From Bacteroidales bacterium (GTDB lineage: Bacteria; Bacteroidota; Bacteroidia; Bacteroidales; Muribaculaceae): a stretch of DNA of 64,000 bases. Under the pieces are notes generated by a model. That model was not told the origin of the DNA and ran no database searches. It was given only the letters and a program-made list of their open reading frames with translations. A program made the position numbers and the translations under genes. Location: positions 1-64,000 of the forward strand of contig CAJTFH010000022.1 of assembly GCA_910575545.1 (NCBI GenBank), read 5' to 3'. Below, one piece after another: positions 32,212 to 49,008 of this stretch. How positions within the stretch are numbered: position 1 is the stretch's first letter; every line of letters starts with the position of its first letter.

Positions 32212-32706
32212 ATGAACACCACAAAAGACATGGCGGCAAAAGCTGCCGCAACCGTATCAGAACAGGCGGCGAAAGTCAGCGCAGCTGCCGCTAAAGTCGC
32301 AGCAAAAGAGAAAGCCGAAGCAGTGAAAGAAAAAGCTGCCGATGCCGTTGATGCCGTAAAGGAAAAAGCTGCGGAAACCGTGGCCAAAGCAAAAGAAAAA
32401 AGCGCTCAAGCTGTCGACAATGCCAAAGAGGCTCTTTCCGATGCCAAGGATAAAGCTGCCGACACAGTGGCAAATGCCAAAGAGAAAGCCGCCGATGCCA
32501 TGGCTTGCGCAAAAGAAAAAGCTGCCGCAGCTGCCAAGACCGTAGCCGACAAAGCCGGAGACCTCAAAGACAAAGCGGGCGACATTAAAGACAAAGCCGC
32601 CGGAGAAGGCTCGTCGATATTCGACAAAGTGAAAGATTTCGCCGCCGACGCCCTTGATGCCGGAGCCAAAGCCGCCCACAACATCGCCGACAAACTCAAA
32701 GGCTGA
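32212..32706 (+). CDS. Ala/Lys-rich LEA-like helical repeat protein
   Basis: A 164-residue protein made almost wholly of Ala, Lys, Glu, Asp and Val in repeats like KEKAADAV, AKEKAAD and DKAGDLKDKAGD. It has no signal peptide and, until a short C-terminal segment (SSIFDKVKDFAADALDAGAKAAHNIADKL), no aromatic residues. The period is near 11, as in late-embryogenesis-abundant group 3 proteins and apolipoprotein-like amphipathic helices. Such proteins are disordered in solution and fold on drying or at membranes. Stress protection or membrane/DNA coating is possible; sequence composition alone cannot decide. It is monocistronic. Confidence 0.7.
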   Translation: MNTTKDMAAKAAATVSEQAAKVSAAAAKVAAKEKAEAVKEKAADAVDAVKEKAAETVAKAKEKSAQAVDNAKEALSDAKDKAADTVANAKEKAADAMACAKEKAAAAAKTVADKAGDLKDKAGDIKDKAAGEGSSIFDKVKDFAADALDAGAKAAHNIADKLKG

Positions 32707-32749: not shown

Positions 32750-32811
32750 CGAAACCTCACCATAACATACAGACAAATCGTGTGTCAGCAATCGCCTTTC
32801 CGACATAATAA

Positions 32812-32845
32812 AAATGTGCTGAGCCAAAACCGGCTCAGCACATTT
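32812..32845. terminator. Terminator between convergent LEA-like and T9SS-type genes
   Basis: A perfect 14-bp stem (AAATGTGCTGAGCC with GGCTCAGCACATTT) and a 6-base loop with A-rich and T-rich flanks, suited to both directions. Confidence 0.8.
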
Positions 32846-32875
32846 CATATGGGTTAATATTATATAGGGAATCTG

Positions 32876-33568
32876 TTACTTAACAACGATTTTGCCGGAG
32901 ATGCGGCCTGCGCGGTAGATGTAGACACCGCGGCCGAGGCCATTGAGGTCAACCGAACCGTGGCCGCTGATTGCGCGGTCAACCAGGCGTGTTCCCAAAA
33001 TTGAATAAACCTCAAGGTGCTCCTTGCCGTTAACACTGTAGCTCAACGAGTTGCCGCCTTCCAATCGCACAAACTCCCCGTTGACAGCCACATTGTCAAC
33101 ACCACCAACCTCTTCAGCGCTACGATTTGAGAAATTAATCGTCAAAACAATCTTATTAGATGGATTTCCATTCTCATAAGCAGTCAAAACTCCAACTAAA
33201 TCCTTAGTATCATCCGTCAACTTCGTAGCACTCCGATGTATGCCAAGATGTTTGGGCGTATTGGCATCCAAGGTGTAAGTTGTTTTAAAGGGAGCGGGAA
33301 CACAGTTCTCAGTGCAATCCTGAAATGATGGAGCAAGCGACTCATCATCACAAGTCCCCTCTAAAGTAATCTGAGTATCTGACGAAGATACAATTTCCAA
33401 TGAAGGCTCCCATGCTACTAACGAAATTGCCGGAACTTGCATAACATACCCAACCTCAATAGAGGTATCGGTTTTTATTTCCTTACCATCATAGATAAAA
33501 TGGAAGCCATCAGCATATGCCATTGAGGCACATGCCAAGGCAAGAATTGATGTAAAAATTTTATTCAT
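32876..33568 (-). CDS. Secreted protein with T9SS-like C-terminal sorting domain
   Basis: A 230-residue exported protein: signal peptide (MNKIFTSILALACASMAYA), a beta-rich body with four Cys (GTCDD, FQDCTENC), and a C-terminal sorting tail (LEVYSILGTRLVDRAISG, then GVYIYRAGRISGKIVVK) typical of type IX secretion cargo that is attached at the cell surface. The body matches no family I know; a recurring pattern in the operon is a partner for Omp28. It is last of the TlpA-DUF6029-Omp28 unit, 31 bases after Omp28. Confidence 0.7.
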   Translation of the reverse strand: MNKIFTSILALACASMAYADGFHFIYDGKEIKTDTSIEVGYVMQVPAISLVAWEPSLEIVSSSDTQITLEGTCDDESLAPSFQDCTENCVPAPFKTTYTLDANTPKHLGIHRSATKLTDDTKDLVGVLTAYENGNPSNKIVLTINFSNRSAEEVGGVDNVAVNGEFVRLEGGNSLSYSVNGKEHLEVYSILGTRLVDRAISGHGSVDLNGLGRGVYIYRAGRISGKIVVK

Positions 33569-33599
33569 AAGCTAATATTTATTTTTTGATTAATCAAAA

Positions 33600-34466
33600 T
33601 CATTCTTCGGGTTCATCAGAACCCGAAGAAACTTTTGCCTCTACAGCCTGAAGCACACCGCTGCCGTTATAGACAAATCCTACAACCGACAGATTTTCAG
33701 GATTCCATTTGGCATCTAAATCAATTTCATGCTCGATGGTGGTCGGGGTGCCATGCACAATGCTCACCGCTTCTCCATTGAACCCGTTGACAGCAGCACG
33801 AAACACATGGTCATGTTTGTAATCGAAGTTGAAACTATTGTTCAACCCATACTGCAACGCGGTTATATCACTCTCCAAAATCCAAAGCTGGAGGTTGCAA
33901 GAGACCTTATCCGTCGATATCTTCAAATCAGCCGTGATTTTCAGTTTGGTCGGTTCACCTGATGCATCATTAACCAATTCAGGTTGCAAATCAATGTCAA
34001 CAATAGGCTCTTTCTGAATCTCGTTACGTATAATGTCTGACCATGCATTTCTGCCGACAAGCCCCGAAGTACGATTGATAGCACCGATTGGCAAACCTAC
34101 ACCTGAAACTACCCCTGCTTTCTTTGCATACTCTTCACCGTCTGGAACCCTAAGGCACTGTGTGATACCTCCCCAAACAGCATCACCATCCCCTATTGAA
34201 AAGGCATCACCACCTGAATGGATTCCGACTACAATGAGCTGGTCGCCATATTGCTCTTTCAACCCCTTGATGATATCGTGGGCTTCAGGGCAGTTAACAC
34301 ACTTCTGGCCGGTGAACTCTTCAAGAAGCACCCCGCGTTTGGCATCGATGGGGGGCAACTCCTTGTAGCGGTCACCGGGTTCTATGTCATTGCAAGCGGA
34401 GAGGGCTGCTCCTGCAGTGAGGATTGCCAAGGCCGCGAGCTTGAAGTTTGTCTTTTTGATGTTCAT
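33600..34466 (-). CDS. Omp28-related outer-membrane lipoprotein
   Basis: A lipoprotein of 288 residues with signal and lipobox LSAC (Cys25). The Omp28 domain starts with a thioredoxin-like redox site GVLLEEFTGQKCVNCPEAH (Cys56 and Cys59) followed by IVVGIHSGGD and LPIGAINR, a thioredoxin-like fold, and then a beta-sandwich-like half. Omp28 was first described as a Porphyromonas gingivalis surface protein; its reaction is not settled. It has its own -7 box (34598-34605) and lies in a run of CxxC envelope genes. Confidence 0.85.
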   Translation of the reverse strand: MNIKKTNFKLAALAILTAGAALSACNDIEPGDRYKELPPIDAKRGVLLEEFTGQKCVNCPEAHDIIKGLKEQYGDQLIVVGIHSGGDAFSIGDGDAVWGGITQCLRVPDGEEYAKKAGVVSGVGLPIGAINRTSGLVGRNAWSDIIRNEIQKEPIVDIDLQPELVNDASGEPTKLKITADLKISTDKVSCNLQLWILESDITALQYGLNNSFNFDYKHDHVFRAAVNGFNGEAVSIVHGTPTTIEHEIDLDAKWNPENLSVVGFVYNGSGVLQAVEAKVSSGSDEPEE

Positions 34467-34597
34467 TTGCTGAAAAAGTTTAGTTCGATGAGAAATTACT
34501 GTTTCCCGGAGAGGGAGCTGTTTTTATGTTGTTTGTTTTCAGCTGTCAGTTGTTGGTATTGTTTCGGAGAGAAGGGATTTCAGAAGAATGGTTCTTT

Positions 34598-34605
34598 CAA
34601 AGGTA
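34598..34605 (-). promoter_or_regulatory. -7 box ahead of the Omp28 gene
   Basis: The minus strand reads TACCTTTG in the 154-base gap between the DUF6029 and Omp28 genes, giving a leader of about 125 bases. No TTTG is correctly spaced. It suggests Omp28 and its follower can be expressed apart from TlpA. Confidence 0.4.
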
Positions 34606-34620
34606 GAGCCAAACCGGCTT

Positions 34621-36264
34621 TTAGAAGTTGTAGCTGTAGGCTAACTGGAAGCCGCGCGAAGCGGGAACATAGCGGCAGACACCGCCTGAGCAGTTGTAAC
34701 CGGCGCGTGTGCGGCCATATCCTACCATCAGGCGGTTGCGGCGGTAGTTGCCGGTGACGGTGGCCATGTAGTAGTGAAGGTTGGTTTCACCGCAGTTCCA
34801 CTGGTCGCTGACGCTCACCATCAGATAAGGCAGAATCGACAGTTCGAGCAGCCCGTAGGCCCAGTCGCCTTTATCCTGTTTGGTGAAGAGATACTGGAAT
34901 TCTCCGCGCAAGGTCAGTTTGTTCGACATCTTCCACTTCGGTTCAAGCACCAGGATGTTGGAGTTTATCATGCCGCCATGCCCTTCAACCACCGTCTGGT
35001 TATAGCGCTGGTTCATATACATGAAGTTCAGATGGAACTCCTTGGTGATTTTCTTGTCGAGCTGCAGATTTATATCCTGGTAGTTCAGCTCACCCATTTT
35101 GAAAAACGAAGTGTGGCCGCCGTCTGTGCCGTAGAGCGAGTTGTGGAACTTTTCACCTCCCGTGTGGTGCAACCCGCGGATATAGCTCACGTTTAGTTTC
35201 AGCTTTGTGCCGTATTTGCCTCCAAGAGCTGTTTTGCGCTTGAATGTATAGGCGAATGCCCCCTGGAAAGCCCACTCGCCGGGCGCGGCCTGGGTGGCAT
35301 ATGGATAGAGAGCTGCCAGCGAATAGGTGTGCTGGTAGGCGAAAGCGGGCATGTTGTTGAGGAATGCCGAGGTGAGACTCATCGACCGCTGGCTGCGGAA
35401 CGACATATCCTCGCTGCGCTTCACCTGCAGCAATGCGCTCCATCCGGTTTTTGAATATGCAGCCGAAAGCATCAGGGCGTTGCCGTGGCGGTAGGTGTAG
35501 TTGTTGTCAAACGACGGATCCTGCCCTTTCCATGCAAATTCACCCAACAGGCTCAGGCCGCCGCGATAGAAATGGGTGCGCACATCGAATGCGTTCACAT
35601 TTTTCGGAAGGTTGAGCTTGAAGTTGGTGCCGGGCACTATGATGTCTTCCTTCTCTTCATTTTTCAGCACATACGATGCCCCGAATGTCCAGATTATACC
35701 TTTGTTGGAAAACGACTTCACATAATCGTTGAGGTCGAACTCGACATCGGCACCGAAAACACGCGACTCCTTGCTCCAGTCCCAAAACCGGCGCTGGATG
35801 CCGCCAAGGGCAGTGAAACGGAAACCTTTCAATGCATTGACCTTCAACCGGCCGCCACGGATTGAGTTATCGATTCCGAGGCTGCGCTCCTCATAAGTGC
35901 GGAGGATGAAACCGCTGCCGAACTGCTCGTAGAAGTCTCCGGCTGTCAACTCAAACCCTTTATACTTACCTTTCACATAAATGTTGGGCACACCCCACCC
36001 CTTGAAATCAGGCTCAAAACCCGGAAGCGGATGCTCAAGATATTCAACCCGCAGACCGGCATCTACGAACTGGCTGTATAAGCCCACATCGGCATAGGTG
36101 TTTGTGAGCACTTTATCCTTATAATCCTCGGTACCTATCTTGTAATCCTTTTCAGGAAACAATATGTCTGACTGCACACTGCCATGAACAGTCACTCCTT
36201 TAGCACCTGCGGCTAAAGGCGCAACGGCCACGCATATTGCAATCGCTGTCTTGCTGAGGTTCAT
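34621..36264 (-). CDS. DUF6029 family outer-membrane protein
   Basis: A 547-residue protein with a signal peptide (MNLSKTAIAICVAVAPLAAGA) and a body of alternating hydrophobic/aromatic beta strands ending in Phe (YNF), all marks of an outer-membrane beta-barrel. The sequence GSVQSDILFPE, YAEVGL-like (YADVGLYSQF) and GWGVPNIYVKG near the start place it in the Bacteroidetes DUF6029 family, which has no assigned function. It sits between TlpA (47 bases upstream) and Omp28, an order that suggests a barrel partner for surface redox proteins. Confidence 0.8.
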   Translation of the reverse strand: MNLSKTAIAICVAVAPLAAGAKGVTVHGSVQSDILFPEKDYKIGTEDYKDKVLTNTYADVGLYSQFVDAGLRVEYLEHPLPGFEPDFKGWGVPNIYVKGKYKGFELTAGDFYEQFGSGFILRTYEERSLGIDNSIRGGRLKVNALKGFRFTALGGIQRRFWDWSKESRVFGADVEFDLNDYVKSFSNKGIIWTFGASYVLKNEEKEDIIVPGTNFKLNLPKNVNAFDVRTHFYRGGLSLLGEFAWKGQDPSFDNNYTYRHGNALMLSAAYSKTGWSALLQVKRSEDMSFRSQRSMSLTSAFLNNMPAFAYQHTYSLAALYPYATQAAPGEWAFQGAFAYTFKRKTALGGKYGTKLKLNVSYIRGLHHTGGEKFHNSLYGTDGGHTSFFKMGELNYQDINLQLDKKITKEFHLNFMYMNQRYNQTVVEGHGGMINSNILVLEPKWKMSNKLTLRGEFQYLFTKQDKGDWAYGLLELSILPYLMVSVSDQWNCGETNLHYYMATVTGNYRRNRLMVGYGRTRAGYNCSGGVCRYVPASRGFQLAYSYNF

Positions 36265-36311
36265 GTGTTATATCTCCGGGGTAATGATTGGCGGTCTGGA
36301 CGCAGAGAGAT

Positions 36312-36806
36312 TTATTTGCTCTGCAATTCGCGTATTTTCTCAATTATATGGCTCTCGGAACCGTCGATATATCCGCTGCGGCTGTCGGCGATATTGCCGT
36401 TGCCGTCGATAATCAGCACGTGGGGAATCATCTGTATGCCGAGCGCGCGCAGGAAATCGCTGTTGGTATCCAGCAGCACCTCATATTCCCACCCTTCGGC
36501 ATCAACCAGAGGTTTCACTTTGCTGACGTTCTGGGCCTCGTCGGTAGAGATGGCGATGAGCTTCATGCCCGTTTCATCCTGCCAGTCGGGATAAACCTCA
36601 TGGATAGCCTTCAGCTCGCGGTTGCAAGGCTTGCACCATGTTGCAAAGAAGCTGATAACAAAAGGTTTGCCGTCATTCGACAGGGTTGCCGTGTCAACGG
36701 TTTTGCCGTCGATGGTTTTCAGGTTGACCGAGGGGAGCTGGGCGCTTGCGCCAGACACCGCAAATATGGCTAAAGCTACGGTAATCAGTGATTTTAAGAG
36801 TTTCAT
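36312..36806 (-). CDS. TlpA-family thioredoxin-like protein
   Basis: A periplasmic or surface thiol-disulfide oxidoreductase of 164 residues: signal peptide (1-22, ending ASA) and one thioredoxin domain with the active site WCKPC (Cys58, Cys61) and cis-Pro in MIPHVLIID. Family members reduce or exchange disulfides in exported proteins. It heads the minus-strand unit TlpA-DUF6029-Omp28-T9SS cargo and is divergent from the 1267-residue fusion that also carries an Omp28 redox motif. Confidence 0.9.
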   Translation of the reverse strand: MKLLKSLITVALAIFAVSGASAQLPSVNLKTIDGKTVDTATLSNDGKPFVISFFATWCKPCNRELKAIHEVYPDWQDETGMKLIAISTDEAQNVSKVKPLVDAEGWEYEVLLDTNSDFLRALGIQMIPHVLIIDGNGNIADSRSGYIDGSESHIIEKIRELQSK

Positions 36807-36870
36807 CAGATTTTCGTTTTTATATTCACACTATGTGGTGCCATCTGCCAATGACACGGTTTAATCTGCG

Positions 36871-36878
36871 CAAAGATA
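36871..36878 (-). promoter_or_regulatory. -7 box of the TlpA unit
   Basis: The minus strand reads TATCTTTG about 65 bases before the TlpA ATG. No TTTG occurs at standard spacing. The 300 bases to the right, as far as the divergent promoter at 37186, show nothing else that I can support. Confidence 0.5.
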
Positions 36879-37185
36879 ATCAGAATTTCCGGAATCGCCA
36901 TACACCGGAGTTTTTTTCGTCACATCTGAACCGCGATTTAACAACCCTTAAATCCACTTCGGGAAACCCTCTCCACAACCGATATGCAGATTGTATGCAG
37001 CCCCGGTATTTTGCGCATAACCGGATTCCGCCACAAAGCCGCTGCAAAGCCCACGTCAAACGGCATCTGCGCAAAACAACCGAATATGTATATCCTATTC
37101 ATTAACGGCATGATTGCAAACCTGTTCCCACAACAATCCGACGCATAAAACACGTGTTAAAAATAGTTCACAACCATTATCGGCT

Positions 37186-37217
37186 GTTGGTATGAACCAA
37201 AATAATACCTACATTTG
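37186..37217 (+). promoter_or_regulatory. Promoter of the 1267-residue surface protein gene
   Basis: GTTG (37186-37189), 20 bases, TACATTTG (37210-37217), one mismatch from consensus. The leader of about 118 bases begins with a 7-bp palindrome (GCGTTAT-TAC-ATAACGC, 37234-37250). Confidence 0.6.
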
Positions 37218-37340
37218 CATCCCACAATAATGCGCGTTATTACATAACGCCTCTGCATGGACAACGAAACAAAACAGAACCGAGACCTGATCATCACTAC
37301 AACGACATAAAAATCATTAACACAATTCAATATTAAACCT

Positions 37341-40300
37341 ATGAACCAAATGAAGAGACAGTTCCTGATGGCAGGAGCGTTGGTTGCCGGCATCTCCGTG
37401 TCTGCAAACGCCCAAGCCAACATGGCACCGGAATTCATCAACCCCATGCCGGGCACCGACATCGTCATCACCGACATGTCGCCCAACGGGAAATGGATGA
37501 TTTCCGAGACCGCAAGCACCAACGACGGCGACATACGTCCGAAAGGAGGCGTGCTCATCAACCTTGAAAACATCACCGACAAGTACACAATATCCCACTC
37601 AAGCGGCCTGGCCGGTGTGGGAGGCGTGACAGACGATGGCTCAATCGTGGTAGGTGAATGCCAGACAAAACCGGCCATATGGTCGAAAGCGACACAGGAA
37701 TGGACCATGCTCCCTCTTCCCGAAGGTTATACGACCGGGCGTCTGAATGCCGTGACTCCCGACGGACACTACGCTGTCGGAATCGTCGGCCAGGATAACA
37801 TCTACGAATTCAATGCCGTATGCTATGACCTCACGACCAAAACAATCGTAGAGCTACCAAACCTGCCGCATATTGACATGACGAATGAAGACCAGAAGCA
37901 GAATTCGCTCAACGCCATTTCTCCCGACGGCCGCTACATTCTCGGCGTATTATCTTATAGCTATATATCACCGATGGCAACCTGCACATATGTGTATGAC
38001 CGGCAGACATCGACCCATAAATTCATCGGATTCAACGAGCCATCCACCCCAGGCGGGAAATGGGTAGGCAAGGTAGACGGCATCCATGCTGTGGAAGGCG
38101 GCTTTATGAGCCCCAACGGCGAATGGGTCGGAGGCGCTGCCTACATGGTGAAAGATATGGACGGCAATTCTTTCGGACGCGAATACTGGGTAGGATACCG
38201 CTACAACATCGCCCAAGACAAATTCGAAGTTTACGACGGGCAATACGACACCGATGTCAGCGGTTTCTCAATCACAAACGACGGCACACTGCTGGCAGCC
38301 ACACCCGCCGTCAATCCTTATTCGTCGATGCTTGTCCGCAGCGGCAACTACTACTATAACCTCAGCCAGATTCTAAAACAGGTCTACGACATCGACTTTG
38401 AAGCAAAAACCGGATACAGCGTCACCGGCAAGCCCGTTGAGGTATCTGCCGACGGACTCACCATCGCCATGCTGCCGTCGACTGCCGAGACCTACATACT
38501 GCGCCTGAAAGAGCCTCTCACAAGCGTGTGCTCCCAGATCGACCTTCTGGGCGACTACACGGTAACCCCGAAACAGGAAAGCGTTTTCTCGGCCCTGACA
38601 ACCCTGAGCATCAATTTCGGCCAACCGGTGTCGGTTGTAGGAAACCAAAACCGCATCGCCCTTCTTGACGAATCAGGCAAAACCGTCAGAAACGCCCTGA
38701 AAGCCTCGGCCGAAGCCTCGACTATTACAATCGGATTCCGCACCACCACCCTCGAACCGGGGAAAAAATACACTGTCCGCATCCCTGCAGGAATGATATG
38801 CCTCCAGGGCGACGAGCAGGTGAAATCACGCGAAATCAACATCACATATCAAGGCCGCGCCAACGGCCCAGTGAAAGCCATCAGCGCATATCCCGCCGAC
38901 GGACATGCTTTCGCACGCCTCGACATGAGCACCAACCCGCTTATGGTGACTTTCGACGCCGAACTCAAAGCTGCCGAGAACGCCAAAGGTTATTTCTACC
39001 GCACCGACAACGACGAGCCCGAGCTGATATGCGAGCTCAACATCGCCTGCGGCTCAAACCAGATGATGGCCTATCCCACTGCCGGACAATATCTCTACAA
39101 AGACCTCGGCTACCGCATCGTTATTCCCGCCGAATCGGTTACCGACCTCAGCGGACAGGGGGGGAATGACGAACTCGTGTTCAACTACACCGGCACCTAC
39201 GTGCGCGAAATCCCCACCGACACCCGCTATATATTCAATGAAGACGGCAACATAACCTCCAACTGGATGTTCCACGAAGGCGACCACAACCAGCCTATCC
39301 AGAAGATGATTGATTGGGGATTCGCCAACGGCGACGGATATCCATGGTTTGCCGTGCGCGACCAGGAATCGTCTGACAACTGGGCGCTGGTGTCACACTC
39401 GATGTATTCGCCAGCAGGACAGTCTGACGACTGGATGTGCACCACCCAGCTGTTCCTTCCCGATGAAAAATGTGTGCTCACATTCGACTCACAGAGCTAT
39501 CTCAAGAGCAAGAAGGATTATCTGAAAATCTATCTTCTCGCAACCGACGACATCTTCACCTCAATCAACGAAACCACTGCCGCCCGTTTCCGCAAAGACG
39601 GGGATGTTATCTACAACGAGCTGCAGAGCCCGGGTGAAAACGAAGAGTTGCTTGCCGGAGAATGGAAACACAACGTAATCGACCTCGCCAAATATGCAGG
39701 CAAGAACGTCTACATCGCGTTTGTCAATGAGAACAACGACCAGAGCGCCGTATTCGTCGACAACGTAACAGTTGTGCGCGACGTCAAATATGCCGCATCG
39801 TTTGAAAACCCCACGCGTGTAATCAACAAAGACGCGCTCAATGTGAAAGGCGCAATCGCGATAACATCGGAACTTGACACATACTCGTCAATCTCGCTCA
39901 CCCTCAAAGACGGCCAGGGCAACACCCTCGACCAGATAAGCGAAACAGGCCTTAACCTTAAGAACAAAGATGTCTATCCATTCAACTTCGCCAAAGAACT
40001 GCCTTTGGCAAAAGGTGTGGAAAACAAGTTCTCGGTTGACCTGAAACTCGGCGACGAGGATGTGGAGACCCTCGCCTCTTCAGTGAAGAACCTCACTTTC
40101 GAACCCCAACAGAGCATCGTGCTTGAGGAGTTCACCGGCCAAGGGTGTAACAACTGCCCACGCGGCATAGTGGCAATTGACAACCTCCACCGCATCTATG
40201 GCGACAAATTCATACCCATCGCCCTGCATTGCTACACCGGCGACGAGCTCGGAGCGGGCCTCCATGCATATGCATCGTTCCTGAGCCTGAAGGGCGCCCC

Positions 40301-41144
40301 GTCAGGCCGCATCAACCGTGGCGACATAACCTCTCCGATGTTGGTAGTCGACGGGAACTATCGTTTTTCAGCCGGCGAGACCGGTGACAATGCCGAAAAC
40401 CTGTCGTGGCTCGACATGGCACAGCGCGAATTCGAGAAACAGGCAGATGCCCAGATTTCGATAGTTTCAGCATACGATGAAGATTCAAAAGGGTTCACAG
40501 TTGACTGCACAGTGAAGAGCGCACTGAGCATGACCGGGCAGAACATCAACCTATTCGCCGTTGTCACGGAAGACAACGTTCTGACCTACCAGTCAAACAA
40601 CAACCACACATACGAGAACCCCGACCTCGGCGAATGGGGTAAAGGTGGAAAATACGGGCAATCTACCGTATATCCCTATTATGCATCACATGTAGCACGC
40701 AACGCCTACGGAACCACCTACAACGGCACCGGCGGCTATATCCCACAGAACATTGAAAGCGACAAAGAATACAAAGCCACAATCACAGGTGTGCTTCCTT
40801 CAACTGTGAATGTTCCCGACAACTGCCATATGGTGGTAATGATGATCGACGGCAACACCAACCGCATTATCAATGCCGACCAGGTTTCGTTGACCGGACG
40901 CTCCGGAGTTGAATCTGTCAAGACTGAGAATACCGATATAACCGTCACAGCCGTTCCATCCGCAGTGCATGTCATTGCAACCGGCGATTTCGTTGCTGAA
41001 ATCTACAGCCTCACAGGACGCCTTATTGCAAGCGGTTCTGGCAACGACATGATGGAGCTCCACACCAACGGCTTCCAAGGCCCTGCCATCATCAGAGTCA
41101 CCTCTGGTAATGCATCGTCGGTTGTCAAAATGATATTGAAATAA
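37341..41144 (+). CDS. Large secreted protein: HAF-type propeller, Ig-like and adhesin-like domains, Omp28 redox domain, T9SS tail
   Basis: A 1267-residue exported mosaic. Signal peptide (1-26, ending ANA). Residues about 30-390 carry repeats like SPNGKWMISE, TPDGHYAVGI and SPDGRYILGV, as in HAF extracellular propellers. About 400-510 and 520-620 look like SbsA/Ig-like domains. About 625-820 resembles a cleaved-adhesin jelly roll (SSDNWALVSHSMYSP, DNVTVVRD). About 925-1180 is an Omp28 thioredoxin-like domain with IVLEEFTGQGCNNCPRG (Cys936, Cys939). The end is a T9SS sorting domain (AEIYSLTGRLIASG to VVKMILK). It diverges from the TlpA unit. Domain limits are estimates. Confidence 0.8.
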   Translation: MNQMKRQFLMAGALVAGISVSANAQANMAPEFINPMPGTDIVITDMSPNGKWMISETASTNDGDIRPKGGVLINLENITDKYTISHSSGLAGVGGVTDDGSIVVGECQTKPAIWSKATQEWTMLPLPEGYTTGRLNAVTPDGHYAVGIVGQDNIYEFNAVCYDLTTKTIVELPNLPHIDMTNEDQKQNSLNAISPDGRYILGVLSYSYISPMATCTYVYDRQTSTHKFIGFNEPSTPGGKWVGKVDGIHAVEGGFMSPNGEWVGGAAYMVKDMDGNSFGREYWVGYRYNIAQDKFEVYDGQYDTDVSGFSITNDGTLLAATPAVNPYSSMLVRSGNYYYNLSQILKQVYDIDFEAKTGYSVTGKPVEVSADGLTIAMLPSTAETYILRLKEPLTSVCSQIDLLGDYTVTPKQESVFSALTTLSINFGQPVSVVGNQNRIALLDESGKTVRNALKASAEASTITIGFRTTTLEPGKKYTVRIPAGMICLQGDEQVKSREINITYQGRANGPVKAISAYPADGHAFARLDMSTNPLMVTFDAELKAAENAKGYFYRTDNDEPELICELNIACGSNQMMAYPTAGQYLYKDLGYRIVIPAESVTDLSGQGGNDELVFNYTGTYVREIPTDTRYIFNEDGNITSNWMFHEGDHNQPIQKMIDWGFANGDGYPWFAVRDQESSDNWALVSHSMYSPAGQSDDWMCTTQLFLPDEKCVLTFDSQSYLKSKKDYLKIYLLATDDIFTSINETTAARFRKDGDVIYNELQSPGENEELLAGEWKHNVIDLAKYAGKNVYIAFVNENNDQSAVFVDNVTVVRDVKYAASFENPTRVINKDALNVKGAIAITSELDTYSSISLTLKDGQGNTLDQISETGLNLKNKDVYPFNFAKELPLAKGVENKFSVDLKLGDEDVETLASSVKNLTFEPQQSIVLEEFTGQGCNNCPRGIVAIDNLHRIYGDKFIPIALHCYTGDELGAGLHAYASFLSLKGAPSGRINRGDITSPMLVVDGNYRFSAGETGDNAENLSWLDMAQREFEKQADAQISIVSAYDEDSKGFTVDCTVKSALSMTGQNINLFAVVTEDNVLTYQSNNNHTYENPDLGEWGKGGKYGQSTVYPYYASHVARNAYGTTYNGTGGYIPQNIESDKEYKATITGVLPSTVNVPDNCHMVVMMIDGNTNRIINADQVSLTGRSGVESVKTENTDITVTAVPSAVHVIATGDFVAEIYSLTGRLIASGSGNDMMELHTNGFQGPAIIRVTSGNASSVVKMILK

Positions 41145-41184
41145 CCCCTCCGGCAGGAAATCACACTGCCGCAAACACAATAAG

Positions 41185-41220
41185 CCTGCGGTCGCCTGCC
41201 AAAGGGTATGCGACCGCAGG
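41185..41220 (+). terminator. Hairpin between the two large secreted-protein genes
   Basis: A perfect 11-bp stem (CCTGCGGTCGC with GCGACCGCAGG), 14-base loop, then TTTTAA. The downstream gene has no visible promoter, so read-through may occur. Confidence 0.65.
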
Positions 41221-41263
41221 TTTTAACTAAACCAAATTTTTCATACAATAAACACAACCTGCA

Positions 41264-43567
41264 ATGAGGAAACTTTTTACCACCTACGCAGCAAACTGCG
41301 CCAGAGTATTGGCCTTGGCAGTCGTGACATGCTTCGGCATACAAGCGGCCAACGCCACAGACCTTGGCGAAATCGAACTCGGAAAAACCTACGAGATTGA
41401 AAAATACCAGCCATTGACCGGGCATTTCACAGCCTCTGAAGGCGGGAAAGTACTTATCGAGGGTGAAAACATCGGAATCTTCTCCGATGCAGACTACACC
41501 AACGAAATCGCCACCACCTGCACCGGCTATGCATCGCTGGGCATCACATACACATTCGATGCCGAAAGCGGAACAACCTATTATTTATACACAAAATTCC
41601 CGATGGCCTCAAAAATCCGCATTTCGATGAAACAGGAATTGGATTTCGTGAATGTGGAACCGGCAGCGGGAAGCTCATTCTCAGTGTCAGGAACCGGAAC
41701 CGTGAATATCCAGTTCAACCTACCTGTCACAGTGGGCAAAGCATCGATAACAGCTAACGGCACCACAGCACGCGTCGGCGTATCCTCCTCCGGTTCATAC
41801 ATCTCTGTCGACCTTGCAACAGCTCTGACCAGATGGCTTGAAAACAGCACCATAAAAAAAGGTGACGAATTCACACTCACTATCAATGACATCAAATCGA
41901 CAGCCGATGAATCACTTTATAACGGCGACGGCATCTACACTGTCAAATACATAGCAGCCGGACAACCGGCACAACTGCTGAAATATGATTTCCCGAAAAT
42001 CTTCAAATCATATTTTGCACCAGGCGACCCTGATGGAATTGCCACCCTTACATTCGACAGAGACCTGCAGACTGAAGGCGCTGAAGCACGAATCAGCTAC
42101 GGTGACATCGAAGCTGCCGACGGTCAATTCTACATGGAACGTCTGCCGGTAGCAATCAACGGGGCTGTAGCCACAGTTGATTTAACCGGCAAATCGCGCC
42201 GCGTGGCTGAAATGATTGGCTCGGCAGCCCCCCAGGAACTGATCAACATTCAGATTACCGGGCTTCGCGACACCGAAGGTAATTTCGTTCAGACAACCGC
42301 TACCGGGGCAGCAGGCTCTTTCTCATTCAACTGCAACTATCTCGAACTGCCACGTATCGACGTAATGGCCGACTTCTTCCCTGCACACGGAAGCTCACTG
42401 GCCGATGTCGACAAGTTGGAAATATGGATATCCGGCCTAAACGGCATCCGCTTCAACGGGTTCAAATTTGAATATGCCGACGGCTCTGAAACCAAATCTG
42501 CCGTAGTAAACAAAAACGACTGCGAATTCACCCCTGAAGAGGAGAACAGCGGCACATATATCGTTGCCATACCCGCAGAGGTAAAAGGGAAACAGGACAT
42601 AACCGTAACGCTCCACGAACTTGTATCAACCGACGGCATCGACCACTCAAACGATGTGAGAGCGAAATATGATACATTTGTAATAACATATTCAAGCCCT
42701 GACTACGGCGCGGAACTGGCCCGTCTGAACAACGGCGACGAAATCCTCATTGAGACGAACTATCTGGAGAAATACCCCGAAATGTTCATTACCTATCAGA
42801 TATTCGACCTCGACGCAGCCGAAGGCGAAAATTCCCTGATCAAACCTGCCGCCCCACTCGCGCTCAACGACGACAACTATCACAAGGCAATTGTTGAAGG
42901 CAGCTACCGCCTGGTGCGCGGCCACCGTTACAATATGGAATTCACAGCTTGGGAGAATGAAGCCGCCAAAAACAACGGCGCAGCAGAAATCGGGAAAGCA
43001 ACCATTCTTTTGCTCGGCACATCAGAACCCTTCCAAACCAGCGAAACAAGATTTGTAAGCATCACACCATCGGTATCGACAGTTCTGAAACCGACCGACA
43101 ACGTGTTTACTCTCGAATTCGACGGCATGGTCAACATAATGGCAGCCGATGCCAAAATCCTGTCAGGCGATGCCGCCCCCATCAGCTTCGCCACCCTCGA
43201 ACCTGAGGAAGCTGTTGTAGACGAAAATTCCGGCGAGAAATACAGCAACACATGGGTGCTCACCGCCGACAAAGACTATATGCAGAACATCGGGCCCAAA
43301 ATGCAAATATCGATAAGGGCCACCGACATGAACGGCAACCTGGTTGTTGACGAGAACGAAACAAATCCCGAAGAGTCATTTGTGTTCATCTTCAACTATG
43401 ACACAACGCAGAGCGGACTCGACAGCGTGATTGCCCCTGAAAACGGCAGTTACATTGTCTACAACCTACAAGGCATCCATGTCGCCACAGTTGAATCGCC
43501 GGCAGAACTGGAAAATCTCCCTGCAGGTCTCTACATCGTTAACGGTGTCAAGACCGTCATCAAGTAA
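41264..43567 (+). CDS. Large secreted beta-rich protein with T9SS-like tail
   Basis: A 767-residue exported protein with signal peptide (1-31, ending NATDLG region) and repeated beta-sandwich segments whose pattern (VEPAAGSSFSVSGTGTVNIQFNLPV, split; ITPSVSTVLKPTDNVFTLEFDGMV, split) matches bacterial Ig-like domains at about 125-215, 370-480 and 590-715. The C-terminus YIVYNLQGIHVATVESPAEL, then LPAGLYIVNGVKTVIK, is the common Muribaculaceae/Prevotella form of the T9SS sorting tail. No enzyme motif is visible. It follows the Omp28 fusion in the same direction, so a shared surface role is inferred. Confidence 0.7.
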   Translation: MRKLFTTYAANCARVLALAVVTCFGIQAANATDLGEIELGKTYEIEKYQPLTGHFTASEGGKVLIEGENIGIFSDADYTNEIATTCTGYASLGITYTFDAESGTTYYLYTKFPMASKIRISMKQELDFVNVEPAAGSSFSVSGTGTVNIQFNLPVTVGKASITANGTTARVGVSSSGSYISVDLATALTRWLENSTIKKGDEFTLTINDIKSTADESLYNGDGIYTVKYIAAGQPAQLLKYDFPKIFKSYFAPGDPDGIATLTFDRDLQTEGAEARISYGDIEAADGQFYMERLPVAINGAVATVDLTGKSRRVAEMIGSAAPQELINIQITGLRDTEGNFVQTTATGAAGSFSFNCNYLELPRIDVMADFFPAHGSSLADVDKLEIWISGLNGIRFNGFKFEYADGSETKSAVVNKNDCEFTPEEENSGTYIVAIPAEVKGKQDITVTLHELVSTDGIDHSNDVRAKYDTFVITYSSPDYGAELARLNNGDEILIETNYLEKYPEMFITYQIFDLDAAEGENSLIKPAAPLALNDDNYHKAIVEGSYRLVRGHRYNMEFTAWENEAAKNNGAAEIGKATILLLGTSEPFQTSETRFVSITPSVSTVLKPTDNVFTLEFDGMVNIMAADAKILSGDAAPISFATLEPEEAVVDENSGEKYSNTWVLTADKDYMQNIGPKMQISIRATDMNGNLVVDENETNPEESFVFIFNYDTTQSGLDSVIAPENGSYIVYNLQGIHVATVESPAELENLPAGLYIVNGVKTVIK

Positions 43568-43576
43568 CCTCATCCT

Positions 43577-43828
43577 TCAATACAACAAAAGCCGCCGGGT
43601 CTCATTTCCCGACGGCTTTTGTTGTATCCCCACGTACAGAATGCAGAATGCCAGCCTAAGCTCTTTCTGACGGTTTTCTTTCTTCGAAAGATACTTATCA
43701 CGATTCTTAATAGTCTGAAGAAGCTCTGACATCAGACAGTCTGTTTGTGCATGTGCCGATTCGTTGCAGCCGGTCATCGCCAACAGCAAAAGCAATTCAA
43801 TCCATTCCGTTAACAGCCGTTTCCTCAT
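43577..43828 (-). pseudogene. Truncated DUF6377-type regulator gene
   Basis: A minus-strand frame from Met 43828 reads MRKRLLTEWIELLLLLAMTG, a signal-like start, then SELLQTIKNRDKYLSKKENR, which matches the opening of DUF6377 proteins (a signal, then a helix with NRDKY-KKE). Those proteins are some 500 residues with TPR repeats, a membrane helix and a DNA-binding end. Here the resemblance stops after about 58 residues and the frame runs into the terminator at 43581-43626. It looks like the 5' stub of a lost gene. The call depends on short similarity. Confidence 0.35.
43581..43626 (+). terminator. Terminator after the 767-residue protein gene
   Basis: A 14-bp perfect stem, one mismatch and 4 more pairs (43581-43599 with 43608-43626), loop TCTCATTT, ending in TTTTGTTG. 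It starts 14 bases after the stop codon. Confidence 0.8.
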
Positions 43829-44046
43829 CATACATAAAGTTAATAAAAAAACACCCATTATGTAAAAGTCACCCGAAACGGGCTTCAGCAAATCAGTGGT
43901 TTCATATGGATAACGTTCCTGGAAACCATATTGGCAACACTACAGATTGCCACAACCCACCAACAGCTATATCATTGAAATAAAACATCTTATCTCTAAT
44001 TTAAATCTAAACCGACTACTTATTTGCTACCAATATGCCATGACGC

Positions 44047-44077
44047 TTTTAGAATAGGCAGACTGCTTATAATTTTG
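44047..44077 (+). promoter_or_regulatory. Promoter of the SusE/F-like secreted protein gene
   Basis: TTTT (44047-44050, one mismatch), 19 bases, TAATTTTG (44070-44077). The leader is about 70 bases. Apart from it, the gene-free stretch 43829-44150 shows nothing I can support. Confidence 0.45.
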
Positions 44078-44150
44078 TAGTACGGATTTCTTATGCGCAA
44101 TTAAATCTAAAACCGGTTAAACATCTTAAATCAACCCTAAAATAATTCCT

Positions 44151-45041
44151 ATGATTAATTTTACAAAAGTAACGGCTACGGGCCTTCTTATGATGACTGT
44201 AGCTTTTGAATCGATGGCAGTGGATCATTTGGCCTTAATCGGCGGTGCTACCCCCGGCGGCTGGGAGATTGGAGACGGTCTCCTTATGTTGCCGGATTCC
44301 GAGAATCCTGACGTATTTAATTTCACAGGCTATCTCAAAGCCGAAGAAGAGTTTAAATTCACCGCAGGAAGAGACTTCTCAGACCCCACCCTGGAATATC
44401 GCAACGAGTCTTCCGACCCATACGACGTATCCAAGCTCGTTCAGGGAGGAGGCGCCACCGACAACAAGTTCAAAGTCAAGGAGAGCGCCAACTACAATGT
44501 GGTATGCAATCTTGCCGACATGACCGTTTCTGTGACCAAAGCCGAATACCAGGAGAATCCAATCCGCTTCAATGCGCTATTCCTTGTAGGCAATGCCACA
44601 GACGGCGGATGGGAAATCGCGGATGGCACTCTTATGACATGGGCCGGAGGAACAGATCCTTTCAAGTTCACTTATTCAGGCGATTTGAAAGAGGGCGAAT
44701 TCAAAATCACTTCAAACCGATATAACGGTTCTTGGGACGGCCCGTGGTTCTTCGCCGGAGTCGACGAAGCTGGCAACATCGACTATTCCAAGATATCACC
44801 CGATGGAAACGGCGACCGCAAATGGCAGGTAGCTGCAGCAGGTCGATACAACATTGAAACCGACCTCCTCAACGGTTCATTTGCAATTACCAATGCGCCT
44901 CAGAATGCCATCGAGGCAGTCGATGCAGATATCGCCGGAACTCCGGTCTACTATAACCTGCAAGGCATGATTGTTTCAAATCCGTCAAACGGTATCTTCA
45001 TTCAGCAGATTGGAGACAAAATCACAAAAGTGATATTATAA
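44151..45041 (+). CDS. Secreted SusE/SusF-like two-repeat protein with T9SS-like tail
   Basis: A 296-residue exported protein. After the signal (1-24) come two tandem homologous domains: LALIGGATPGGWEIGDGLLM (from about 27) and LFLVGNATDGGWEIADGTLM (from about 145). Each is followed by F-F-GYL/GDLK-EFKFTA/EFKITS, the starch-binding SusE/SusF fold. SusE and SusF are normally surface lipoproteins with three or more such domains; here there is no lipobox, and the end VYYNLQGMIVSNPSNGIFI to KVIL is a sorting tail. So it seems to be a T9SS-delivered carbohydrate-binding protein. No SusC/SusD is nearby. Confidence 0.75.
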   Translation: MINFTKVTATGLLMMTVAFESMAVDHLALIGGATPGGWEIGDGLLMLPDSENPDVFNFTGYLKAEEEFKFTAGRDFSDPTLEYRNESSDPYDVSKLVQGGGATDNKFKVKESANYNVVCNLADMTVSVTKAEYQENPIRFNALFLVGNATDGGWEIADGTLMTWAGGTDPFKFTYSGDLKEGEFKITSNRYNGSWDGPWFFAGVDEAGNIDYSKISPDGNGDRKWQVAAAGRYNIETDLLNGSFAITNAPQNAIEAVDADIAGTPVYYNLQGMIVSNPSNGIFIQQIGDKITKVIL

Positions 45042-45052
45042 CTCATTCAAAA

Positions 45053-45085
45053 CCATCCCGGATAGACTAACCCTGTCCGGGATGG
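45053..45085 (+). terminator. Hairpin after the SusE/F-like gene
   Basis: A perfect 10-bp stem (CCATCCCGGA with TCCGGGATGG) beginning 12 bases past the stop codon. No T run follows, so efficiency is uncertain. Confidence 0.5.
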
Positions 45086-45249
45086 ATACATATCCATTAA
45101 TAACATGCCATGAAAACCAGATTCAGCATTTTTCTTCTCTTACCGGCCTTGAATCGCCGGAATTCTTCACCGCTATAATACCCCCGGCATCCCTCGGCCA
45201 TAAGCCGCATAATCCAACAAGGGATTCAACTCCCCCATTGTAAAACTTC

Positions 45250-45306
45250 AGGGTCGCGACCGCGAAATCAGCCATCTCCAACCGGCGGATTTGCAGTCGC
45301 GACCCT
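45250..45306. other. Isolated inverted repeat in a gene-free stretch
   Basis: AGGGTCGCGAC (45250-45260) pairs perfectly with GTCGCGACCCT (45296-45306), continuing inward through a GCG-AAATC/GATTTGC pair with one bulge. It stands alone in the 45086-45394 stretch between the SusE/F-like gene and the dsbD terminator, where I find no gene. It may be a small RNA, a repeat unit or a binding site. Confidence 0.4.
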
Positions 45307-45394
45307 TCTCGTTCTGTGAATACCCGGCGGATGTGTTTATCTGGTGAATAATAGGAGGTGAAAACAAGTCAGTTATTAACTGTATCCAAAACAA

Positions 45395-45429
45395 GGCGGT
45401 GTGCCGCTCGAAAGTCGGCACACCGCCTA
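45395..45429. terminator. GTGTGCC hairpin after dsbD
   Basis: A perfect 13-bp stem (AGGCGGTGTGCCG with its complement) and a 9-base loop, 36 bases beyond the dsbD stop. The arm shares GGCGGTGTG with the purA hairpin at 16086. Confidence 0.55.
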
Positions 45430-45464
45430 TGGATGCTACGTAACAGCAAACGGTGGAACTGCTG

Positions 45465-47507
45465 TTATTTCTTGAAATCCTTTATGCCTTTTTCAAGGAA
45501 ACGGGTGAATGCCGGGATATTCTCGTCATATGAGAACGGCCCTGAAAGCAGCTCACCTTTGCCGTTGAGAACAACATAATATGGCTGGGCGTTTGCCTGG
45601 AATTTATAACGCTGCAGGTAGCTCCACTTGTCACCATAAGTGTCGAGGGTGATTTTTTTGCCATATTCCTCAACAGTGATAGGCTCCGGAAGCGACTTCT
45701 TTTCGTCGACCATCAGTTTGATGACAACAAAATTGTCTTCGATCATGGTGTGCACACCGGCATCATCGAGCACCGCACCTTCCATTTTGCGGCAGTTCAC
45801 GCATCCATATCCCGAGAAATCGATCAAGACAGGTTTCCCCTCCTGGGCTGCCACGCGCATCCCCTCTTCATAGTCGTCATATTCAGTGAAACCGCCGCCA
45901 TAAAGGTTGAAATCCTGGGTAAACAACGGAGGCACGAAAGCGCTGACGCTCTTAAGCGGCGCACCCCACAAACCGGGTACGAGATAAATGGTGAAAGCAA
46001 ACGACACCATTGCAAGGAAGAACCTTCCGGTGCCGATACTGCTGTCGGCAGGGCCGTAGTGCTTGAAATTGAAGGTGCCGAGCAGATAGAGACCCATAAG
46101 GCCGAAAATCACAATCCACAGAGCCAGGAACGCCTCACGGTCGAGGATATGCCAGCCATATGCCAGGTCGGCCACAGACAGGAATTTAAGCGACAAGGCC
46201 AGTTCTATGAAACCGAGCACAACCTTGACGGTGTTCATCCATGAACCCGATTTCGGTGCGCTCTGCAACCACGATGGGAACATCGCAAACAGGCAGAACG
46301 GAATGGCCAGCGCCAAAGAGAATCCGAACATACCGACCGCAGGGCCGAAACTGTCGCCGGTGCTGGCTGCCTCTACGAGCAGAGTACCTATGATAGGGCC
46401 GGTGCATGAGAATGACACCAGCGTCAGCGTGAATGCCATGAAGAATATGCTCAACAAACCGGTGGTACGCTCGGCTGTCGAATCAATTTTATTACTCCAC
46501 GACGAAGGGAGCTGGATATTGAACGCGCCGAAAAACGACACAGCAAACACAACCAGCAACAGGAAGAAAATGATGTTACATACCGCGCTGGTCGACAATG
46601 CATTGAGGGCGCTGGCCCCGAACAGGGCTGAAATAATCAGACCGAGGGCGAGATATATCACTATGATTGATACCCCGTAGATGCAGGCGTCGCCAACTGA
46701 TTTGGCACGTGATTTACCTTTTTTCAGGAAGAAGCTGACAGTCATCGGAATCATAGGCCACACACACGGTGTGAGCAGAGCCACGAATCCTCCAAGGAAA
46801 CATGTGATGAAGATATACCACAATGAAGAACTGTCGGTTGAATCGTTGCCTGTGCTTTCGAAATCAACAGGTTCCCAGAGTGTATCGGATGTAACCGCAT
46901 TCTCCGCAGCTGCGCCCTGCGCCTGTGTATCCGCCACACTATCAACCGGAACAGCGGCGGCAGAAGCCTCTGCGGCGCCACCATTCTCTACAGGCTCTTC
47001 CACCAATTCTTTGGCAGGGGTATCGGCAACCTTAGCCGCAGCAATTTTAGCAGTGCCTTTGAGATTGAAAGTCTCTTTTGTCGGCGGAATGCAGTTCTGG
47101 TCGTTACATGCCGAATAGCGCAATGTCAAATCAATGGCAAAATCCGGGGCAGTGGCCTCAAACGGCTGTTTCAATGTAACCGTGCCGGTCCACCAGCTCA
47201 GTTCCGCCTCAAACATGCTGTCAAACTCCTTGTGCGGAGTTTTGTCAGCTTTAAGTTTGCCTGTCAGTTTCACCCCTTGCAGCGAAGTCCAGTTCAGTTC
47301 CAAAGGTGTAGGCCCTATCTCAGGGTCAACATCATAGCTGTAGACATGCCAACCTGGCTCCACGGTGGCAGTCATCACCACCTCACCTTTGGCATCGCCT
47401 GTCATGGCGGTGGTCACGTTCCACTTCACAGGATTCATGAGCTGGGCATTTACCGCAGAAAATGAAGCGGCAAGCACCAGCATCAACATCGTGATTGCTT
47501 TTCTCAT
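45465..47507 (-). CDS. dsbD: Thiol:disulfide interchange protein DsbD
   Basis: It carries electrons from cytoplasmic thioredoxin across the inner membrane to envelope reductases. Signal peptide (1-21), N-terminal immunoglobulin-like domain with a Cys pair (SACNDQNC, near residue 133), a low-complexity Ala/Glu linker, the membrane core with TPCVWPMIPMTVSFF and SFSCTGPIIG, each with its redox Cys, and a C-terminal thioredoxin-like domain with FSGYGCVNCRKME (Cys569, Cys572). Length is 680 residues. It lies next to the TlpA/Omp28 genes and is the obvious electron source for them; that link is inferred from position and function. Confidence 0.93.
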   Translation of the reverse strand: MRKAITMLMLVLAASFSAVNAQLMNPVKWNVTTAMTGDAKGEVVMTATVEPGWHVYSYDVDPEIGPTPLELNWTSLQGVKLTGKLKADKTPHKEFDSMFEAELSWWTGTVTLKQPFEATAPDFAIDLTLRYSACNDQNCIPPTKETFNLKGTAKIAAAKVADTPAKELVEEPVENGGAAEASAAAVPVDSVADTQAQGAAAENAVTSDTLWEPVDFESTGNDSTDSSSLWYIFITCFLGGFVALLTPCVWPMIPMTVSFFLKKGKSRAKSVGDACIYGVSIIVIYLALGLIISALFGASALNALSTSAVCNIIFFLLLVVFAVSFFGAFNIQLPSSWSNKIDSTAERTTGLLSIFFMAFTLTLVSFSCTGPIIGTLLVEAASTGDSFGPAVGMFGFSLALAIPFCLFAMFPSWLQSAPKSGSWMNTVKVVLGFIELALSLKFLSVADLAYGWHILDREAFLALWIVIFGLMGLYLLGTFNFKHYGPADSSIGTGRFFLAMVSFAFTIYLVPGLWGAPLKSVSAFVPPLFTQDFNLYGGGFTEYDDYEEGMRVAAQEGKPVLIDFSGYGCVNCRKMEGAVLDDAGVHTMIEDNFVVIKLMVDEKKSLPEPITVEEYGKKITLDTYGDKWSYLQRYKFQANAQPYYVVLNGKGELLSGPFSYDENIPAFTRFLEKGIKDFKK

Positions 47508-48219: not shown

Positions 48220-49008
48220 ATGACACTCTCACTCAAATCAATCTTACTGTCGGTGGTAATGACTGCCGGTACGGCCGTTATGGCATGTGCATGGGAAGTT
48301 CCCGATGAAACCCTCCATTACAGCGTGCGGTTCAAATGGGGGCTAATTGATGCCAACGTAGGCATTGCAACAGTATCCACACGAAACATTCCGGGCACAG
48401 ATAGTTTCGAAGCCACTCTGTCGGGGAAATCAATCGACCTGTTAGGGCATTATTACGTGGCATCAGACGACATAACCGGCACCATACTTGCCCATCCCGA
48501 CATCCAATGCAACAAAGCAGCCCTTACAAGCCAGCATGGGGAATTTTCAATAGAAACGATAACCGGAAACGCTGAAGGCCCTTCAAAAAACGGGCCTGTC
48601 ACAGGCCATCTGCCCGACGGTAAGGTGATACGTTCCCGCGAAAGCAATTATGCATCGGGGCTATCAACCGACCTTCTCAGCGTGTTCTACTACATGCGTC
48701 AGATTGACTATGCCATTCAGCAACCGGGCAGCACTTTCAACATAAGCCTTTCCAACGGGAATCAAATCGACAGGCTGCAGATTATCTACATAGGGACTGA
48801 CGACATAACCGTAAACGGCTCAGTCAATTCATGCCGGCACATCTCATTAAACTTCACCGCAGGCTCCAAAAGCGATTCTTTGGAAGTATGGATTGGCAAT
48901 GACGAGGCACGCACCCCGCTGTTCATCAAAGGGTCGCTATCCGTAGGCCATATGGAATGCACGATTGTTGACCAACAGACCATCGACTCGCTGCCTCTGG
49001 CCGATTGA
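48220..49008 (+). CDS. Exported DUF3108 protein, first paralogue
   Basis: A 262-residue periplasmic protein with a signal peptide (MTLSLKSILLSVVMTAGTAV, cleavage near ACA-W). The DUF3108 pattern is EVPDETLHYSVRFKWGLIDANVG at the mature start, split as EVPDETLHY and RFKWGLIDANVG, then LSTDLLSVFYYMRQIDY midway. The family has a lipocalin-like beta-barrel prediction and no known activity. It lies 13 bases after the SecB-like gene and about 100 before a paralogue with the same layout. Confidence 0.8.
   Translation: MTLSLKSILLSVVMTAGTAVMACAWEVPDETLHYSVRFKWGLIDANVGIATVSTRNIPGTDSFEATLSGKSIDLLGHYYVASDDITGTILAHPDIQCNKAALTSQHGEFSIETITGNAEGPSKNGPVTGHLPDGKVIRSRESNYASGLSTDLLSVFYYMRQIDYAIQQPGSTFNISLSNGNQIDRLQIIYIGTDDITVNGSVNSCRHISLNFTAGSKSDSLEVWIGNDEARTPLFIKGSLSVGHMECTIVDQQTIDSLPLAD

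What the first reader, a model, noticed from the sequence alone, without database searches (positions are those of the whole stretch)
32876..47507. Cluster of CxxC envelope proteins around Omp28: a possible surface thiol-redox system tied to type IX secretion
Within 15 kb lie TlpA (WCKPC), a DUF6029 barrel, an Omp28 lipoprotein (KCVNC), a T9SS-tailed protein with four Cys, a 1267-residue fusion with a second Omp28 redox motif (GCNNC), two further T9SS-tailed proteins, and DsbD (GCVNC). Motifs and gene order are seen directly. DsbD to TlpA electron flow is established for those families. That TlpA then feeds Omp28 proteins at the outer membrane, perhaps through the DUF6029 barrel, is inference. 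It would be a disulfide-reducing or -shuffling route extending past the periplasm.
Basis: partly seen in the sequence, partly recalled or inferred. Interest (0 to 1): 0.75.

Follow-up and report, generated by a model that had tools for sequence, protein, structure and literature searches.

The report
Possible thiol relay across outer membrane
A conserved gene cluster in Bacteroidota joins a periplasmic thioredoxin, an outer-membrane barrel with a fixed cysteine pair, a surface thioredoxin-like lipoprotein and a relative of the secretion regulator PorA, and may carry thiol chemistry to the cell surface.

The parts
36312..36806 (-). TlpA/ResA-like exported thioredoxin, WCKPC
   Evidence: AhpC-TSA 77.4 bits, cut-off 26; CxxC in 136 of 136 aligned relatives; nearest PDB sequence 2m72, E 2.8e-59
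34621..36264 (-). DUF6029 outer-membrane barrel, 24 strands by my count of the model, with C525-SGGV-C530 between the last two strands
   Evidence: PF19494 582 bits; model pLDDT 86, pTM 0.79; C525 in 137 of 137 and C530 in 136 of 137
33600..34466 (-). Omp28 lipoprotein: thioredoxin-like domain (CVNC, conserved P126) plus beta-sandwich
32876..33568 (-). PorA-like 230-aa protein with T9SS tail and conserved pair C85/C89
   Evidence: TIGR04183 23.0 bits at a cut-off of 23; family profile finds PorA
32811..32846 (-). terminator-like hairpin after the four genes
   Evidence: 16-pair stem, loop of 4, T-rich tail
37341..41144 (+). 1267-aa exported protein with Ig-like, choice-of-anchor J and Omp28 (GCNNC) domains; divergent neighbour, possible further surface member
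   Evidence: Big_5, Omp28, NF038128; strong relatives (over 500 bits) beside the trio in 14 of 80 named loci
45465..47507 (-). DsbD-type inner-membrane reductase (GCVNC), probable electron source
   Evidence: DsbD_TM 101.6 bits; directly after Omp28 in 18 of 80 named loci

Best explanation
The core is a tlpA-DUF6029-omp28-porA gene run. Shown by sequence: linkage across many families, a conserved cysteine pair in each of the four proteins, a TlpA-DUF6029 fusion, an Omp28-PorA-like-Omp28 fusion, and another surface-type thioredoxin in the place of Omp28 in one family. Inferred: a DsbD-type reductase loads periplasmic TlpA; TlpA docks in or under the wide DUF6029 barrel and exchanges thiol/disulfide with its C-x4-C loop; the surface thioredoxin takes this over and sets the redox state of surface targets, first of all the cysteine pair of PorA. 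It would be laid out like the porin-cytochrome conduit MtrCAB, with thiols in place of haems. Direction is open; reducing outward is preferred because of DsbD beside the trio.
For: TlpA beside or fused to 162 of 174 distinct barrels; 75 of 76 testable named loci; background 2 in 1.22 Mb. C-x4-C at the barrel's end in 173 of 174; CxxC of TlpA 136 of 136, of Omp28 128 of 128, PorA-like pair 60 of 60 and 59 of 60. TlpA-DUF6029 single proteins in G292 and G314, both Pfam domains over cut-off. Omp28-PorA-like-Omp28 protein in G230. T9SS-tailed ResA-like thioredoxin after the barrel in family f24. Omp28 model matches HBP35, a surface thioredoxin that reduces insulin (PMC2907840). DsbD directly after Omp28 in 18 of 80 named loci.
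Against: No biochemistry. No coordinates could be inspected, so whether TlpA reaches the loop is unknown; the loop block has mean pLDDT 67. An invariant disulfide can be purely structural. TlpA is not near in 12 of 174 barrels, among them all four f33 genomes and the one f34 genome. No Omp28 or ResA-like gene lies within 1.7 kb in 21 of 174, a few at contig ends but also a group of f4 genomes with only TlpA next door. DsbD within 4 kb in 0 of 40 wide phylum loci. The own genome also has a VKOR-type oxidase.
Confidence: 0.5

Rival explanations
1. DUF6029 is a dedicated outer-membrane export pore for PorA (and perhaps for the surface thioredoxin). TlpA keeps the client's cysteine pair in the right state in the periplasm; Omp28 receives it outside.
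Confidence: 0.2
2. The C-x4-C of DUF6029 is a structural disulfide. TlpA is its dedicated folding helper, and Omp28 and PorA are separate surface proteins that share the operon.
For: Extracellular loops can be stapled by disulfides (general knowledge); TlpA is the most constant partner.
Against: Does not explain the repeated joining of a surface thioredoxin, or its replacement by a different thioredoxin with a T9SS tail, nor a permanent TlpA-barrel fusion.
Confidence: 0.2
3. DUF6029 is a polysaccharide export porin and the thioredoxins are incidental.
For: HHpred similarity between Wzi-type barrels near OPX genes and DUF6029 was reported (PMC9603273, passages).
Against: Near-constant TlpA linkage, fusions and the invariant cysteine loop.
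Confidence: 0.05

Closest known systems
HBP35 of Porphyromonas gingivalis (surface thioredoxin, T9SS cargo)
   Different: Omp28 is a lipoprotein, in an operon with TlpA and a barrel; HBP35 binds haemin and uses a T9SS tail.
PorA (PGN_0123/PG2172) of P. gingivalis
   Same: Fourth gene after TlpA, DUF6029 and Omp28 in both; profile of the window's family finds PorA, cysteine pair aligned.
   Different: Pairwise match covers the C-terminal part only; regulation not tested in the window's organism. The passages and sections read say nothing on PorA's own cysteines.
MtrCAB porin-cytochrome conduit
   Same: Layout: periplasmic carrier, wide barrel, surface carrier. MtrB is among the Foldseek matches of the barrel (rank 22).
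   Different: Thioredoxin-like partners with one CxxC each instead of multihaem cytochromes; layout only, no shared family shown.
DsbD/ScsB-type inner-membrane thiol transporters with TlpA/DsbC partners
   Same: Thiol-disulfide relay through a membrane protein with partners on both sides (recalled).
   Different: Inner membrane and helical; here the outer membrane and a barrel.
FimD/PapC pilus ushers
   Different: No usher Pfam hit; no chaperone or pilin genes in the run.

Membership tests
DUF6029 (PF19494) | full-length match to the Pfam model | tested here: met
   582 bits, residues 8-547 to model 6-538
Omp28 outer-membrane lipoprotein (NF033782) | score over the curated cut-off | tested here: met
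   238.1 bits, cut-off 150
Omp28 outer-membrane lipoprotein (NF033782) | exposed on the cell surface | tested here: inconclusive
   Lipobox found in 101 of 128 aligned relatives, 81 of these with two or more acidic residues in the six after the cysteine, like published export signals (PMC5080379, passages); no control set was run
TlpA/ResA-like thiol-disulfide oxidoreductase | thioredoxin-family domain with CxxC | tested here: met
   CxxC 136 of 136. ResA model NF002854 70.3 bits, under its cut-off of 170
PorA | same gene order as in a P. gingivalis-like genome | tested here: met
   L237: TlpA, DUF6029, Omp28, then a 246-aa protein with the published PG2172 cleavage-site peptide
PorA | homologous N-terminal domain | tested here: met
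   Profile of the window family's N-part finds PorA with 34.9 bits, E 3.5e-9 for 4000 sequences; signal peptide is part of the alignment. PorA-N crystal not found by profile
PorA | needed for T9SS expression through PorXY-SigP | not testable with these tools
   Own genome has SprA and a 527-aa receiver-PglZ protein that reads like PorX by eye
DsbD | DsbD N-domain, transmembrane domain and thioredoxin domain with CxxC | tested here: met
   DsbD_N 36.8, DsbD_TM 101.6, Thioredoxin_7 45.6 bits
MtrCAB porin-cytochrome conduit | multihaem cytochromes inside and outside the barrel | tested here: not met
   TlpA and Omp28 have one CxxC each, not followed by H; no cytochrome hit among the eight proteins
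Chaperone-usher porin | usher sequence family | tested here: not met
   Pfam up to E 1 gives only DUF6029 and a sub-threshold DUF6505; fold match alone

The most novel reading that the evidence does not exclude
Bacteroidota have a thiol-disulfide conduit through the outer membrane: TlpA feeds a cysteine loop of a 24-stranded barrel, a surface thioredoxin takes over, and PorA is its redox-sensing end point, so that expression of type IX secretion follows the redox state of the cell surface.
Probability: 0.3. Interest if true: 0.95.

Novelty: categorically new. Interest (0 to 1): 0.8.

Why it matters
I know of no thiol-based electron or disulfide route across an outer membrane (recalled, not searched exhaustively). 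The role of the thioredoxin domain of the surface protein HBP35 is stated to be unknown (PMC2907840, passages). The PorA paper says that what activates PorY remains to be determined and that other factors should mediate between surface PorA and inner-membrane PorY (PMC7712824). A conserved gene run that joins PorA to a barrel and two thioredoxin-like proteins makes both questions directly testable in strains that can be grown, and gives a function to test for DUF6029.

Tried and rejected
Tried without result: the published PorA-N crystal structure as a PDB hit for the PorA-like family, by profile (the significant hits are T9SS C-terminal domains and tail regions) and by single members (nothing significant). 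The genome behind PDB 2m72 was sought in family f28 (best 50% identity) and in an order sample (best 72%) before the genus of G749 gave 99%. G651 looked like a third TlpA-barrel fusion (open frame 715 with one stop); it is two adjacent genes. Distance correlation between the families (barrel-TlpA 0.95, barrel-Omp28 0.79) is not used as evidence, since shared descent alone gives it. Atomic coordinates of the models were not available, so the position of the cysteine loop rests on strand order.

Rejected: that all eight proteins form one system. Rejected: that T9SS secretion needs the module; SprA is in 227 of 296 sampled genomes, DUF6029 in 80.

Limits of my counts: the Omp28, TlpA and PorA-like sets were chosen by profile score (at least 30, 40 and 20 bits), which favours kept cysteines; the DUF6029 set (at least 30 bits, 480-680 aa) left out the divergent f24 barrels, which were then checked separately (10 of 10 with the motif, chosen partly by having it; independently, 15 of 15 f24 genomes). 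One search counted only barrels of 440-720 aa; with shorter ones allowed found the motif in 73 of 75 genomes, the two misses being a frame-broken (G023) and a shortened (G226) barrel, described only. Named and unnamed loci may include the same species. For Omp28 the script found 71 of 74 testable named loci; the other three (L061, L072, L083) are adjacent in the listing. In one search the ResA-like profile contains a T9SS tail and also picks up T9SS-tailed Omp28 proteins; the surface-thioredoxin column was inflated by TlpA cross-hits and is replaced. The SprA contrast is confounded by descent. The match of SprA and DUF6029 lists was made by eye.
Full report
What is there. Four genes run together on the minus strand: TlpA (36806-36312), DUF6029 (36264-34621), Omp28 lipoprotein (34466-33600) and a 230-aa T9SS-tailed protein (33568-32876), with gaps of 47, 154 and 31 bp and a 16-pair terminator-like hairpin just after. 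Divergent from TlpA lies a 1267-aa protein with Ig-like, choice-of-anchor J and Omp28 domains. DsbD lies at 47507-45465. Between them are a 767-aa protein without a significant Pfam hit and a 296-aa SusF_SusE-type protein. The window lies in a 3.27-Mb genome of 73 contigs; the closest DUF6029 relative in the scan (88% identity) comes from an uncultured Muribaculaceae.

Linkage. 80 named loci that encode DUF6029 relatives were fetched, the best 80 of 122 confirmed. TlpA is immediately upstream on the same strand in 75 of 76 loci with enough flank, and Omp28 directly downstream in 71 of 74 by script, the other three being adjacent in the gene listing. Two TlpA hits over 60 bits occur in 1,218,675 bp of the remaining flank. 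In a sample of 296 genomes of the phylum, DUF6029 is in 80 and the Omp28 lipoprotein model hits 84, both in 61; outside one family (f24, 19 of the 80) 59 of 61 DUF6029 genomes have Omp28. Of the 79 other DUF6029 genomes the region was examined in 75: TlpA is near in 67, in 22 of 24 families; f33 (0 of 4) and f34 (0 of 1) lack it. A CxxC-bearing Omp28-like or ResA-like gene is within 2.5 kb in 67 of 75. Pooling all loci: 174 distinct barrels, 162 with TlpA within 1.7 kb or fused, 134 with Omp28 within 1.7 kb, 153 with Omp28 or a ResA-like gene, 151 of those 153 with a CxxC. Of the 21 with neither, some sit at contig ends and several are f4 genomes in which TlpA is divergent and no surface thioredoxin is next door. 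SprA, a marker of type IX secretion, is in 79 of 80 DUF6029 genomes and in 148 of the other 216.

The cysteines. The barrel has an invariant pair: C525 in 137 of 137 and C530 in 136 of 137 aligned sequences, most often CSGGVC (80 of 137), also CVGGVC, CVGGIC, CIGGVC and others. In the pooled set 173 of 174 have C-x4-C in the last 60 residues; the exception is a frame-broken copy. The pair lies between the last two strands of the model. The barrel ends in F in 147 of 174, and by the usual rule that both ends of such barrels are periplasmic (recalled) this loop is extracellular. TlpA keeps its CxxC in 136 of 136, Omp28 its CxxC and the likely cis-proline P126 in 128 of 128, and the PorA-like family C85 in 60 of 60 and C89 in 59 of 60.

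Fusions and replacements. In two genomes of one genus (G292, G314) TlpA and DUF6029 are one open frame, with both domains over Pfam cut-off in the 667- and 671-aa readings and the C-terminal CVGGVC kept. In G230, the one DUF6029 genome of the sample without a SprA hit, a 689-aa lipoprotein reads Omp28 - PorA-like domain (ICAGGQC) - Omp28; the N-part profile matches that middle domain with 37.6 bits. G651 has similar parts as separate genes, the PorA-like match there being weak (16 bits). In family f24, TlpA and the barrel (CTSGIC) are followed not by Omp28 but by ResA-like proteins: one of about 175 aa, a lipoprotein by eye in the four f24 examples printed, and often one of about 270 aa with a clear T9SS sorting domain (46.7-51.2 bits, cut-off 23, in 5 of 5 such proteins scanned; a sixth by Pfam). 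So what is conserved is a kind, periplasmic thioredoxin plus cysteine-loop barrel plus surface-type thioredoxin, rather than one particular surface protein.

The PorA link. In papers PG2173 is Omp28 and PG2172 is PorA (PMC9722745, passages); PG2174 is an uncharacterised vesicle protein (PMC4335976, passage). The PDB relative of the window's TlpA is 2m72 (I recall that it is PG_2175). In one of them (L237) the order is TlpA, DUF6029 (CSGGVC), Omp28, and a 246-aa protein with Q at position 28 and the published cleavage-site peptide of PG2172: this is PorA. A profile of the window's 230-aa family finds it with 49.2 bits, its N-part alone with 34.9 bits and the cysteine pair aligned; the pairwise match with the window's protein covers the C-terminal part only. 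DUF6029 is 48%, Omp28 29% and TlpA 56% identical between window and L237. PorA is on the cell surface, its loss lowers SigP and T9SS components, and the authors write that other factors should mediate between it and PorY (PMC7712824; abstract, section 11, first of two parts of section 12 and passages). The window's genome has SprA and a 527-aa protein with a PglZ domain that reads like PorX.

Mechanism. The most likely reading, I think, is a thiol-disulfide relay from periplasm to surface: DsbD-type reductase to TlpA, TlpA to the barrel loop, the loop to the surface thioredoxin, and on to PorA and other surface proteins. DsbD lies within 4 kb of the barrel in 22 of 80 named loci, in 18 of them directly after Omp28; in the wide phylum loci it does so in 0 of 40 and in the short ones in 1 of 29, and in the window it is about 9 kb away. 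Shown: linkage, conserved cysteines, fusions, replacement. Inferred: surface position of Omp28, contact of TlpA with the loop, electron flow, signalling. The direction could be the reverse: the own genome has two DsbD_TM proteins and one VKOR. The strongest rival is that the barrel exports PorA, which is reported on the surface of T9SS mutants (PMC7712824).

Novelty. Searches for DUF6029 (1 paper), Omp28 with thioredoxin and Bacteroid- (1 paper), a six-term search on thiol transfer at the outer membrane (0 papers with all terms), a five-of-six-term search (47 papers, 15 listed), PG2172-PG2175 (7 papers) and PGN_0120, 0121, 0122, 0124, 0125 (1 paper) showed no description of this module in what I saw. 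The library holds only openly licensed papers. A preprint links surface thioredoxins of Muribaculaceae to high-fat diet, not to a barrel in the passages seen (PMC13404670). I rate the proposed system as categorically new, on the condition that the relay or the export reading proves right; the families themselves are known.

Noticed in passing
window 37341-41144: 1267-aa exported protein with Ig-like, choice-of-anchor J and Omp28-type thioredoxin (GCNNC) domains; strong relatives lie divergent from TlpA in 14 of 80 named loci.
   Followed up: partly
window 32212-32706: 164-aa Ala/Lys-rich repetitive protein right after the gene run on the other strand; a relative sits beside the run in L036.
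   Followed up: no
window 48220-49008 and 49054-49878: Two adjacent exported proteins that look like tandem paralogues by eye (shared 'YKWGLI' and 'YYYMRQ' stretches).
   Followed up: no
L169:3390-5459 and L243:1-2570: PorA-like domain fused between two Omp28 domains in one genome, and weakly recognisable as a separate gene between two Omp28 genes in another: a hint at how PorA stays at the surface where SprA was not found.
   Followed up: partly
L203-L214 (f4 genomes): TlpA divergent from the DUF6029 barrel and no Omp28 next door in several genomes, yet the CTGGVC loop is kept in the four printed.
   Followed up: partly
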